The translations under genes and the position numbers were made by a program. Below the pieces are notes generated by a model. The model did not search any database. It saw only the letters and a program-made list of their open reading frames with translations, and had not been told where the DNA came from. A stretch of 38,340 nucleotides of DNA from Calothrix sp. C42_A2020_038. Lineage in GTDB: Bacteria > Cyanobacteriota > Cyanobacteriia > Cyanobacteriales > Nostocaceae. Numbering within the stretch: position 1 is the first letter of the stretch; every line of letters begins with the position of its first letter. Below, one piece after another: positions 15,158 through 19,021 of this stretch. The DNA lies in NCBI GenBank assembly GCA_015272395.1, contig JACYLQ010000039.1, forward strand, positions 1 to 38,340, written 5' to 3'.

Positions 15158-15910
15158 TCACTTTTGAATTTCTTCTCGAAGTTGCTCTAAGTCAATATAG
15201 CTATCGGCCACATCAATTAGACTTTCACTTGTCATCGAACTTAAACTTACTATTTCTACTTGTACCCCTTGATATGCTACTGCATTAACTGCATATGCTA
15301 AATCGCCATCACCACTCAGTAAAATTAAAGTATCACAATATCTAGCCAATGTCAGCATATCCACTGTGATTTCTACATCCATATTGGCTTTTTTAGAACC
15401 ATCAGGAAGATAAACCAAATCTTTTGTAAATACTCTATAACCGTTACGACGCATCCATAATAGAAATCCTTGCTGCTTCTCATTGGTATTATCAACTGGT
15501 GTATAAAAATAAGCACGTAGTAATTGACGTTGTTTAACTAGACAACGCAGCAACTTTGTGTAATCAATTTCTAAGTTTAGGTGCATAGCTGCATAAAACA
15601 GATTTGCACCATCTATAAATATAGCCACCTTTTCTTCGCTTGCCGAAACTGCTGACCTTGTATTTGGACGCGTGCGTCTTCCCAAAGCTGGAAAATTTTC
15701 AGTGGTACTCAGTTCCATAATTCCGGGCATTATCGAACCTTCCATAGCCGATACTTCCCGGACGGTATTCAAGCCCGCATTTACATTATCTGTAATATCT
15801 GCATTATTTTCAATCTCCGAGTACTGGCTTTGCTTCTGTAAATTGGAATCTGCTGAATCTACTTTCAAAGTTAACTTTTTATTATTCCGAGGTTGTGGAA
15901 GCAACTGCAT
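15158..15910 (-). CDS. LabA-like NYN domain protein (DUF88)
   Basis: This 250-residue protein has an N-terminal disordered, Ser/Asn-rich stretch (1-90) followed by a NYN (PIN-like RNase) domain (about 94-240). The acidic metal site is visible as D100 in FIDGAN, D178 and D184 in NMDVEITVDM, and D201/D203 in SGDGD. In Synechococcus, LabA of this family acts in circadian output downstream of KaiC; other NYN proteins are ribonucleases. Assignment to LabA itself rather than a paralogue is uncertain. The gene is convergent with the hybrid kinase (51 bases between stops). A TCCGGA hexamer lies about 80 bases upstream of its start. Confidence 0.85.
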   Translation of the reverse strand: MQLLPQPRNNKKLTLKVDSADSNLQKQSQYSEIENNADITDNVNAGLNTVREVSAMEGSIMPGIMELSTTENFPALGRRTRPNTRSAVSASEEKVAIFIDGANLFYAAMHLNLEIDYTKLLRCLVKQRQLLRAYFYTPVDNTNEKQQGFLLWMRRNGYRVFTKDLVYLPDGSKKANMDVEITVDMLTLARYCDTLILLSGDGDLAYAVNAVAYQGVQVEIVSLSSMTSESLIDVADSYIDLEQLREEIQK

Positions 15911-15987
15911 AATTTTGATAACGCTCCTGAGCGTAATTTTTTTTACTAAGCAAACGGCAATTGGTGTAACTATAACAGTTCAGAGCA

Positions 15988-15993
15988 TCCGGA
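15988..15993 (-). promoter_or_regulatory. TCCGGA (DIF1-like) hexamer upstream of the NYN gene
   Basis: TCCGGA is the core of the DIF1 element found near position -35 of early heterocyst-differentiation promoters. Here the spacing to a -10 box is not convincing (TTACAC after 18 bases, or TATAGT after only 13), so the call is tentative. The hexamer is palindromic and its direction is set only by the nearest gene. Confidence 0.25.
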
Positions 15994-16382
15994 ACTGATT
16001 ATGTATCGCGGCGCCCAGAAAGCTGCTTTTAGTATTCTTGGAGCTACCACCTGATGTCAATTAACATAACTTGTTAATTTAAGATTTTCTTTATTTTTCA
16101 CCATCTTCTAGAAGTTTAGTAGCAATTCCACAAAAAAACATAAAAATTTTAATTACTTACTTAAATAAAAATACTGTTATTTTTTCTTTCTGCTCAAAAA
16201 AATCAAGTTAACAGCTTGATATTATCATGTTATAAGCATTGTTGCTACTCTCAGATCAAAAATCTTGCTTTTTAATATTTTTTTAAGATTGTCAGCAGTG
16301 CGAGCTTATATAGAATAACATCTATTTTTGGAAATATGCAAAGGACGCATTGTGTTTGGAAATACATAATACGTGCATACAG

Positions 16383-16412
16383 TTTGGTCTAGTAGCAAAC
16401 TACTAGACCAAA
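16383..16412. ncRNA. Perfect 13-bp hairpin in long intergenic region (possible RNA element)
   Basis: TTTGGTCTAGTAG (16383-16395) and CTACTAGACCAAA (16400-16412) are exact complements around a CAAA loop. No T-run follows on either strand, so it is not a standard terminator. It could be part of a small RNA, a protein-binding palindrome or the remnant of a mobile repeat. Confidence 0.35.
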
Positions 16413-16915
16413 TTGCGACTAAGTTATGCAATTCCGTTACCCCAGAAACAGAATAGCAGTCAACCTCAAAAGGTAGATAAGATTTTATGTATATTACTTC
16501 GGCTTGAAAGTTATGGTAGTTTCCCCCAAAAGGCATAAGCTATCTGAACAAGATATTCTTAGCTTTTTGGACTAGCTTGTCAGGTTTTAAAAGGTTAGCC
16601 CTAAAAAAATCTCAATAAATAAATTGTAGCGGTTTCGATGCAAGGAGTAGTTAACTTGGTTCGTGTTGTAATGAAGCTTGTATACTTGCGCTGCTGCCGT
16701 CGGTGCCCAAACTGACTAATGCTTATTGAAGACTTACAAATCACACACTACTCATTAGAAAAGTATCGAGCTATTGCGTAAGTATTTTGTGTCTTAAATC
16801 TTTCACTGATGCTTTGTAACTCAGGTTTAAAGTGTTAAAAATAACACACTTGTTTTCGACTGATTGCATTTTATATTACAACACGATACCAGTTCATAAG
16901 TACACATGATACACC

Positions 16916-17137
16916 TTAGACAGCAGGGGAATTACCAACAAAGTATTCCATCAAGTTTCGGCGTCCGCTACCACGATGTGGAATCGGTTGTTCTGGTTTC
17001 TTAGGCTTGCTTCCAGGCTTAGTTCTTGATGCCAAAATCAGATTCATATCAGACTTGAACTGCGAACTATTTTGGAACTCTAGAACTAGGGAACTTAAGA
17101 ATAATGTAGTAACCAAAAGTGAAATGACAGTACGCAT
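16916..17137 (-). CDS. patX: PatX-like heterocyst-inhibition peptide precursor
   Basis: This 73-residue protein has an N-terminal hydrophobic signal or anchor segment (MRTVISLLVTTLFLSSLVLEF). A basic linker (SRTKPGSKPKKPEQ) leads to the segment I-P-H-R-G-S-G-R-R, with R-G-S-G-R at residues 55-59 (DNA 16961-16975). RGSGR is the HetR-binding pentapeptide of PatS. PatX proteins are known to combine a signal peptide with an H-R-G-(S/T)-G-R-R motif near the C-terminus and to be widespread in filamentous cyanobacteria. The processed peptide is expected to move between cells and lower HetR activity, setting heterocyst spacing. The start is the ATG at 17137. A DIF1-type element stands upstream at the right distance. 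The 14 residues after the motif are not needed by the model. Confidence 0.9.
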   Translation of the reverse strand: MRTVISLLVTTLFLSSLVLEFQNSSQFKSDMNLILASRTKPGSKPKKPEQPIPHRGSGRRNLMEYFVGNSPAV

Positions 17138-17168
17138 AGCAGATGTTTATTTTAGAACTCTCCATCCA

Positions 17169-17199
17169 CTAGTACTGAGTTTGCTTTAGTGCATCCGGA
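17169..17199 (-). promoter_or_regulatory. DIF1-type promoter of patX
   Basis: On the minus strand TCCGGA (17199-17194) is followed after 19 bases by TACTAG (17174-17169), a fair -10 box. This would give a start near 17162 and a leader of about 25 bases. TCCGGA near -35 is the established mark of early heterocyst-differentiation promoters in Anabaena. Confidence 0.6.
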
Positions 17200-17242
17200 T
17201 GATTAATTAAAAAGTATTGTTTTTTACTTTAGATAAAAAAAC

Positions 17243-19021
17243 TTACTTTTCGATATGTTCGACAAGTAACCAGTTGCCTGCTGAATTATAACGACCCCAA
17301 AGCTTGATTAATTCCCCACTTGTAAGATTTTTGAGTATTGAGTCAACATGCGGGTGTAAAGTTACAAGCTGCCAAGTTTGTCCTTCGTATTGAGACGGTG
17401 TTGTGACTGTAAATATGTAATCTTGCTGACTACAAAGATGAAAAATTCCAGTCACATATTTATTATTACGTATCTTCACTGAATTTTCATGTATGTATAA
17501 ACACTGATTTTCTGCAATTGATGGGCAAACACCACTGATTGGATAAACTGTGGGATTGTCTATGTAATACTTTTGCCATTTTAGCCATTCAGGGTTGTCA
17601 AGAGTCAGATTGAAAAAAGGCACAATCGCATTGGGTAAATATAAATTTTCGATTAAGGAAATTTGTAAAGTTTTTACTTGTAAATACCGAGGATGAATAG
17701 AGTTTTCAATACATAAAGCTGCTGCCATACCTACGGCTTGACCAATGTTCATTGCAACAGGTTGAAGTCGAGTGGCGCCGTTTGCAATATGGGAGACTGA
17801 GATATTTTTTTCACAAGCGAAAAAACCATCAACATCAGCAGGAACCAAACAACGGTAAGGAATAGTAAAAGGTGTCCCTGTCCAACGTCCACCCCAACGA
17901 ATCGATTTAGGTTGTAAAGGAAACTCGATACCAGGATAATGATGGTCATTCGCATAGTTACCTATAGCAATAGCATCTTCATGTAAAGGTGCTGCATTTC
18001 CTCCATCTGAAGGTAATATATCTTGTTCGCATAGCGTTGTTAGACCTATTAAACGGCGACTCTCACGATAATAAGGATGTAGGGCAAAACTTGTAGAGAT
18101 GTTATTAAACAACTCTCTGGCAGGGAAGACATCTGGCGCCAAACCATAACGCTTCCCTAACTGTGATTGAATAAAGTGGGCGAAGTTTTGGCTGTGCCAG
18201 AAGCATTCTTGTAAAAATTCCTGTCGTTTTGGCTCTTGTTCAACTAGCCTTCCAACATTTTCACCCCAATCATTACCTTTGAGGGGCCAGTTGATCATAA
18301 ATCGATTTCCAGGTAAGCGTCCGTAGTTCATGAATTTCTCAGCACCATAATTATCCCAGGCGCCAATAAATAGTGATTCATCGTAATTTAGAGCTTTTGG
18401 TATTGCAGGAGCATCCGACCCAAAATCCTGCATCACTACGACCCAAGTCGGTGCTTGCACAGAATATTTTTGAGTGAGATAACTATATTCAACAGGGGCA
18501 CTTTTTTCACCAAATGTTGATTGAAGTTCCCAACCCCAGCGATAAGGTATTTCTCCTAAAGCTAATAAATCACCAAGTTCAGTACCATCGATTGTTATTT
18601 TGGCATGAACAGTAAATGAATCAAATCTTACACCTGTGATGCAATTACCTTGACGCAATACTTCCAAAGGTACATACCCAGAAATCCATTGTAAATTTGG
18701 TAATGCATTTACCCAATTGGCAAAGATTTGGGCACCGATACGGGGTTCATAACTAAAAAAACTAACCCAACTATTGTCTAACCCCTCAGATTGTTCAGCA
18801 TGTAACTCGTGTAAAAATTCACCCCACAAACCCGTTTGAAATGCTTTAAGTTCATTACCATCAGGCACCGTCACACCCGCACTAGTTAGCATTCCTCCTA
18901 ACCAGTCAAATTCACTTACTAAAATCACTTTGGCGCCACGTCTTGCCGCTTGAATTGCCGCTGCGGTTCCACCAGTTCCACCACCAACCACTAATACATC
19001 TGTATGATATTGATTATGCAT
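17243..19021 (-). CDS. FAD-dependent oxidoreductase (FAD_oxidored family)
   Basis: This 592-residue protein has an N-terminal Rossmann dinucleotide site VVGGGTGGTAAAIQAARRG (GxGxxG at 13-18) followed by LGGMLTSAGV, the usual start of the PF12831 FAD-dependent family. Other family marks are TIDGTELGDLLALG, the segment ESRRLIGL, and FFACEKNISVSHIANGATRLQPVAMNIGQAVGMAAAL near the FAD-closing end. The last 130 residues form a separate beta-rich tail. There is no signal peptide. The substrate is unknown. It lies 105 bases upstream of patX on the same strand, but patX has its own promoter element. Confidence 0.87.
   Translation of the reverse strand: MHNQYHTDVLVVGGGTGGTAAAIQAARRGAKVILVSEFDWLGGMLTSAGVTVPDGNELKAFQTGLWGEFLHELHAEQSEGLDNSWVSFFSYEPRIGAQIFANWVNALPNLQWISGYVPLEVLRQGNCITGVRFDSFTVHAKITIDGTELGDLLALGEIPYRWGWELQSTFGEKSAPVEYSYLTQKYSVQAPTWVVVMQDFGSDAPAIPKALNYDESLFIGAWDNYGAEKFMNYGRLPGNRFMINWPLKGNDWGENVGRLVEQEPKRQEFLQECFWHSQNFAHFIQSQLGKRYGLAPDVFPARELFNNISTSFALHPYYRESRRLIGLTTLCEQDILPSDGGNAAPLHEDAIAIGNYANDHHYPGIEFPLQPKSIRWGGRWTGTPFTIPYRCLVPADVDGFFACEKNISVSHIANGATRLQPVAMNIGQAVGMAAALCIENSIHPRYLQVKTLQISLIENLYLPNAIVPFFNLTLDNPEWLKWQKYYIDNPTVYPISGVCPSIAENQCLYIHENSVKIRNNKYVTGIFHLCSQQDYIFTVTTPSQYEGQTWQLVTLHPHVDSILKNLTSGELIKLWGRYNSAGNWLLVEHIEK

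What the first reader, a model, noticed from the sequence alone, without database searches (positions are those of the whole stretch)
16916..17199. PatX-type RGSGR peptide gene with a DIF1 promoter element
The 73-residue frame has a signal segment, a basic linker and HRGSGRR near its C-terminus. A TCCGGA stands 19 bases before a -10-like box, about 57 bases upstream of the ATG. Either alone could be chance; together they identify a heterocyst-pattern gene that automatic annotation often misses. Here the mature motif has a 13-residue tail after RGSGRR, so a second processing step is implied.
Basis: partly seen in the sequence, partly recalled or inferred. Interest (0 to 1): 0.7.

Follow-up and report, generated by a model that had tools for sequence, protein, structure and literature searches.

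The report
PatX heterocyst-inhibitor gene, a normal copy
The small gene is a real member of the known PatX family, whose exported peptide tells neighbouring cells of a cyanobacterial filament not to become nitrogen-fixing cells, and its promoter, position and C-terminal tail are those usual for the family.

Summary
Window 16916-17137(-) encodes a 73-residue protein with a hydrophobic N-terminus, a proline/lysine linker, HRGSGRR and a 13-residue end; TCCGGA lies at 17194-17199, 19 bases before TACTAG. It is not chance. A scan of the 84,980-species genome collection for TCCGGA plus the conserved leader gave 111 places: 106 open into an RGSGR frame, 4 are cut by the locus end, 1 reads RGGGR. The 80 listed records are all cyanobacteria, and 77 of these 80 loci have the same FAD-oxidoreductase gene just upstream. 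hetR is in the genome. This is patX, a described HetR-inhibitor gene. The 'tail' is not peculiar to it: 14 residues after RGSGR is the commonest length (61 of 105 complete frames), so trimming it is a family-wide question. Of the two 'flanking' peptides published for PatP cleavage, one lies inside the MBP tag, so the C-terminal cut is not mapped by it. More unusual, but outside the window: this genus's PatS-like peptide carries two RGSGR motifs, and three other genomes encode 4-, 11- and 17-motif precursors.

The parts
16916..17137 (-). patX coding sequence, 73 aa
   Evidence: Translation; homologues; dN below dS in 6 of 6 pairs compared
17072..17137 (-). residues 1-22, hydrophobic export-signal-like N-terminus
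   Evidence: Maximum 15-residue Kyte-Doolittle mean 2.34; 1.85-2.41 over 30 homologues. SignalP not available
16979..17029 (-). residues 37-53, basic proline/lysine linker (5 P, 4 K, 1 R of 17)
16961..16978 (-). residues 54-59, HRGSGR, the expected mature hexapeptide
   Evidence: RGSGR invariant in 30 of 30 aligned homologues
16919..16960 (-). residues 60-73, C-terminal tail RNLMEYFVGNSPAV
   Evidence: 14 residues after RGSGR; 22 of 30 and 61 of 105 complete frames have 14
17194..17199 (-). DIF1 motif TCCGGA
   Evidence: conserved position
17169..17174 (-). -10-like TACTAG, 19 bases after DIF1
   Evidence: TANNAG at this place in 26 of the 29 loci that have TCCGGA
17214..17227 (-).
   Evidence: 24 of 30 loci have one 27-30 nt upstream of DIF1, 96 of 111 have one 26-30 nt upstream. 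The consensus GTAN8TAC is recalled
17138..17162 (-). predicted 25-nt 5' leader (start at 17162 if DIF1 is centred at -35)
   Evidence: Mean conservation 0.88 over the last 24 bases before the ATG; start site inferred, not measured
17243..19021 (-). upstream neighbour, FAD-dependent oxidoreductase (PF12831), same strand; conserved gene order, not part of the signal
   Evidence: 77 of 80 loci

Best explanation
This is the patX gene of a heterocyst-type cyanobacterium; its genus very probably holds Calothrix sp. PCC 7103 (identical PatX in a same-genus genome). On nitrogen limitation NtcA (box 17214-17227) and the HetR-HetZ circuit (DIF1, 17194-17199) switch it on in prospective heterocysts. The protein is exported by its N-terminal signal and cut outside the cytoplasm, probably by the peptidase PatP. 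HRGSGR is released, reaches neighbouring cells and blocks HetR binding to DNA. Shown here: sequence, homology, conserved promoter, conserved gene order, hetR in the genome. Inferred from published work on PCC 7120: induction, export, cutting and HetR inhibition. Unknown: how the C-terminal tail is removed.
For: hetR in the genome, E 2.8e-48, a 299-aa ORF. Homologues at E<0.01 in 31 of 60 genomes searched (own included), all among the 36 of the window's own family and none in the 24 of other families. RGSGR invariant in the 30 best loci. DIF1 at 62 or 63 nt from the ATG in 29 of 30. Pattern scan of the 84,980-species collection: 111 places, of which 106 open into an RGSGR frame, 4 are cut by the locus end and 1 reads RGGGR. 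NtcA-type box in 96 of 111. FAD gene upstream in 77 of 80. Purifying selection: dN 0.12-0.53 against dS 0.66-1.76 in 6 pairs. Published: DIF1 promoters of patS/patX depend on HetZ (PMC7377430, passages); PatX export, PatP, and PatX6 (HRGTGR)-HetR binding at 88 nM (PMC12756182, parts 1-4 of 8).
Against: No expression data. No SignalP run. The N-terminus lacks an obvious AXA cleavage site (read by eye). The -10 box TACTAG is a poor TATAAT. TCCGGA by itself is not rare here. No TCCGGA was found in the 3.2 kb held around the genome's own hetR, which include about 850 nt upstream of it, although in PCC 7120 hetR has one. HetZ and PatP were not searched for in this genome.
Confidence: 0.93

Rival explanations
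1. It is patX by descent, but in this organism its main target is another HetR-controlled process (necridia, filament fragmentation, akinetes) rather than heterocyst spacing.
For: PatX occurs in HetR-bearing filamentous cyanobacteria that form no heterocysts, and inactivation in PCC 7120 gives no visible change in nitrogen-depleted medium (PMC7761841, passages). A PatS-like peptide is also present in this genome and could carry the patterning.
Against: The NtcA-type box in front of DIF1 ties it to nitrogen status. Two strong Fer4_NifH (PF00142) matches exist in the genome, although that family also rings in 14 of 14 control genomes and so is weak evidence of nitrogenase.
Confidence: 0.15
2. 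The ORF and TCCGGA are a chance coincidence in an intergenic region.
For: TCCGGA occurs 8 times in the window, 3.61 expected; 75 places in the genome match the 14-base degenerate RG[ST]GR pattern, fewer than the 112 of the reversed-pattern control.
Against: Fixed spacing, conserved protein, purifying selection and conserved neighbour in other genomes.
Confidence: 0.01
3. It is a non-functional relic of patX, with PatS alone active.
For: A two-motif PatS-like peptide exists in the same genome.
Against: Intact frame, invariant RGSGR, intact NtcA-type and DIF1 boxes, dN below dS in the 6 pairs compared.
Confidence: 0.03

Closest known systems
PatX (Elhai and Khudyakov 2018; Nostoc/Anabaena PCC 7120 PatX)
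   Same: Small protein, hydrophobic N-terminus, RG(S/T)GR motif, DIF1 promoter, hetR in the genome
   Different: HRGSGR here, HRGTGR in PCC 7120. The PCC 7120 protein itself was not aligned here. I recall from the 2018 abstract (paper not held) that an apparent NtcA site precedes DIF1 in heterocyst formers, so that arrangement is probably already in print
PatS
   Same: RGSGR peptide precursor with a DIF1 promoter
   Different: PatS is 13-17 aa with the motif C-terminal (PMC9284123 and PMC7761841, passages). This genome has a separate PatS-like frame with two motifs (G000:C14:21758-21847)
HetN
   Same: Carries RGSGR
   Different: HetN carries the motif internally and, as I recall, is a larger dehydrogenase-like protein; none of the 13 in-frame RG[ST]GR segments from 18 fetched stretches of this genome looks like one by eye. 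No HetN homology search was run

Membership tests
PatX | RG(S/T)GR motif near the C-terminus | tested here: met
   HRGSGRR at residues 54-60 of 73
PatX | Hydrophobic N-terminus / Sec-type signal | tested here: met
   Hydropathy 2.34, within the range of 30 homologues; cleavage and export not testable here
PatX | DIF1 motif (TCCGGA) close upstream | tested here: met
   62 nt before the ATG
PatX | NtcA-type site before DIF1 in heterocyst formers (recalled from the 2018 abstract) | tested here: met
   GTAN8TAC at 17214-17227; binding not tested
PatX | Genome holds hetR | tested here: met
PatX | Same position next to the same gene in relatives (my own test, not a published criterion) | tested here: met
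   FAD oxidoreductase upstream in 77 of 80 loci; 2 too short, 1 without
PatX | Induction on nitrogen step-down and suppression of heterocysts when overexpressed | not testable with these tools
   Needs experiment
PatS | Very short peptide (13-17 aa) ending in RGSGR | tested here: not met
   73 aa, hydrophobic N-terminus, 14 residues after the motif

The most novel reading that the evidence does not exclude
The C-terminal tail is a functional propeptide: HRGSGR is released only when a second, still unmapped cut removes it, giving the inhibitor a two-lock maturation. In related lineages the inhibitor supply is raised by putting several RGSGR motifs on one chain (two in this genus's PatS-like peptide; four, eleven and seventeen in three other genomes), like repeat-type hormone precursors.
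Probability: 0.25. Interest if true: 0.55.

Novelty: new member of a known kind. Interest (0 to 1): 0.22.

Why it matters
As a gene it adds one clean patX, with an intact NtcA-DIF1 promoter, to a known family. Its use is as a calibrated example: the DNA pattern TCCGGA-N43/44-ATARACATYTRYT-ATGMG, which contains no RGSGR codon, retrieved 111 places of which 106 open into an RGSGR frame. The comparison also shows that the end of PatX after RGSGR has a preferred length and that the published peptide offered for its removal does not map that cut, a concrete gap in the account of how the diffusible inhibitor is made.

Tried and rejected
Rfam scan of 15900-17300: no family at E<=0.1. The sigma-70 consensus scan of 16300-17300 does not list the patX promoter. 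Pfam gives no family for this protein at E<=0.001; the other family libraries were not tried. A search for peptides ending exactly in RG[ST]GR-stop found 5 pattern places in the genome, none coding it. That would have led to the wrong statement that PatS is absent, until the looser pattern and translation showed a two-motif PatS-like frame that ends in Ile-Ser. Of the 75 pattern places, one was patX; I picked by eye 21 whose codons could spell RG[ST]GR, fetched them in 18 stretches and set the other 53 aside as spelling other residues. In the order-wide search for multi-motif precursors 8 of 388 genomes matched at E<=0.01, but three of these (G027, G135, G339) show no RG[ST]GR frame at the match. 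A pattern for further RGSGR copies in two other genomes was badly written and uninformative. The region held around hetR has no TCCGGA, against the simple expectation from PCC 7120. Among the 106 pattern hits with the motif, L067 has RGSGR early in the chain and HRGEGRR at the usual place.

Full report
What is there. It has a hydrophobic start, a proline/lysine linker, HRGSGRR and a 13-residue end. TCCGGA is at 17194-17199, and 19 bases on stands TACTAG (17169-17174); 56 bases separate TCCGGA from the ATG.

Is it chance? TCCGGA alone could be: 8 in the window, 3.61 expected. The combination could not. I examined the 30 best loci (own locus included; weaker rows of that call got no locus and were not examined). 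RGSGR is present in all 30. TCCGGA begins 62 or 63 nt before the ATG in 29 of 30; the exception, L003, reads TCCGGG. In 26 of them, four near-identical ones dropped, TCCGGA is conserved at 0.99. The stretches around it score 0.57 (-200 to -150), 0.71 (-150 to -100), 0.81 (-100 to -64), 0.73 (-56 to -38), 0.82 (-38 to -24) and 0.88 (-24 to the ATG); third codon positions in the first 60 coding bases score 0.71. dN is below dS in 6 of 6 pairs.

A second test used no protein. I scanned the 84,980-species genome collection for TCCGGA followed by the conserved leader and start codon. It gave 111 places; titles were shown for 80, all cyanobacteria and mostly genera I recognise (recalled) as heterocyst formers. 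Of the 111, 106 open into a frame with RG[ST]GR, 4 run off the fetched stretch, and 1 (L064) reads RGGGR. One of the 106, L067, has its RGSGR early in the chain and HRGEGRR at the usual place. The pattern was written from the loci, so it is not independent of the leader sequence, but it contains no RGSGR codon. The 80 listed loci were also checked for gene order: a homologue of the window's FAD oxidoreductase (PF12831) ends just upstream on the same strand in 77, 2 are cut too short, and 1 (L081) lacks it.

The NtcA-type box. GTAAAAAACAATAC at 17214-17227 fits GTAN8TAC (consensus recalled). A GTAN8TAC begins 27-30 nt upstream of DIF1 in 24 of 30 loci and 26-30 nt upstream in 96 of 111, against a background of 0.38 per kb per strand over 80 loci. 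Six of 30 and 15 of 111 lack it. I recall the abstract of Elhai and Khudyakov 2018 as describing such a site before DIF1 in heterocyst formers; that paper is not held. I therefore do not claim it as new.

The host. Two strong PF00142 matches exist, but this family also rings in all 14 control genomes and is weak evidence of nitrogenase. Two of the six other same-genus genomes (G004, G005) have PatX proteins identical to those in records named Calothrix sp. PCC 7103 and Calothrix sp. FI2-JRJ7. The single best PatX match, 59% identity, is in another genus of the same family (G025).

How it works. Published work on PCC 7120 shows that patX is induced early in prospective heterocysts and suppresses differentiation when overexpressed (PMC7761841, passages). 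DIF1 promoters of patS and patX depend on HetZ. PatX must be exported, PatP (Alr1666) matures it, and HRGTGR binds HetR at 88 nM and blocks DNA binding (PMC12756182, parts 1-4 of 8 read). I see nothing in this gene that departs from that scheme.

The tail. They are not: 14 residues after RGSGR is the commonest length, 22 of 30 and 61 of 105 complete frames, often with a pattern like R-x-L-M-E-Y and ending in V. Shorter tails (2-6 residues in 18 of 105) exist too, so the length is preferred rather than fixed. A cut after RGSGR is thus needed family-wide if the free hexapeptide is the signal. In PMC12756182 two non-tryptic peptides are said to flank HRGTGR; one of them, GPDIIFWAHDR, lies letter for letter inside E. 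coli maltose-binding protein, the C-terminal tag of that construct. That peptide therefore does not map the cut at the C-terminal end of PatX itself. The supplementary figures of that paper were not seen.

Outside the window. The same genome has a 30-residue PatS-like frame with two motifs, MIVLFDSERGSGRVKALISLEDDRGSGRIS (G000:C14:21758-21847). All 7 genomes of the genus among the 60 searched, own included, have a two-motif form. A TCCGG[ATG]-N19-TA element stands 154-156 nt before the first ATG in 6 of 7. At what looks by eye like the same locus, between a dihydroorotase-like and a sigma-factor-like frame, G025 has a four-motif version. Two genomes of another family have exported-looking chains with 11 and 17 motifs and a PatX-like start (G043, G130). 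G130 has hetR; in G043 none was found. Such precursors look rare: in an order-wide sample 8 of 388 genomes matched a four-motif query at E<=0.01, and three of those eight show no RG[ST]GR frame there. Six literature searches (among them RGSGR with tandem, repeats or copies) listed no paper whose title or shown start of abstract describes such precursors. The 2018 PatX paper could not be read, so I do not claim they are unreported.

Verdict. The finding is right and ordinary: a well-formed patX, a new member of a known kind.

Noticed in passing
L040:1177-1266 (G000:C14:21758-21847, +), own genome outside the window: PatS-like 30-residue frame with two RGSGR motifs, present in 7 of 7 genomes of the genus among the 60 searched; a DIF1-like TCCGGT-N19-TAATAG lies 154 nt upstream.
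   Followed up: partly
L190 / L207:7748-8764 (-) and L174 / L208:7004-7609 (+): Exported-looking proteins with 17 and 11 RGSGR motifs and a PatX-like N-terminus (MR[IV]YTSILLS); the second genome (G043) gave no HetR_C match.
   Followed up: partly
L173 / L209:8145-8330 (-): Four-motif PatS-like frame at what looks like the locus of the two-motif PatS of the window's genus.
   Followed up: partly
L177 (G032): Two RGSGR motifs lie inside a long open frame that looks by eye like a pyruvate:ferredoxin oxidoreductase.
   Followed up: no
L026, L030, L086: 101-residue PatX versions (L086 is from Fischerella muscicola) with a repeated linker segment and a second, degenerate GGSRR motif after the intact RGSGR.
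   Followed up: no
L064 and L067: PatX of Dendronalium phyllosphericum CENA369 reads RGGGR in place of RGSGR; in L067 the RGSGR sits early in the chain and HRGEGRR stands at the usual place.
   Followed up: no
window 16383-16412: Perfect hairpin (GGTCTAGTAG...CTACTAGACC) about 500 nt downstream of patX, without a clear T run; the 61-nt stretch holding it folds with z -3.99.
   Followed up: partly
PMC12756182 (iScience 2025): The peptide GPDIIFWAHDR reported as flanking the PatX hexapeptide is inside the MBP fusion partner, so it does not map the C-terminal cut of PatX.
   Followed up: yes
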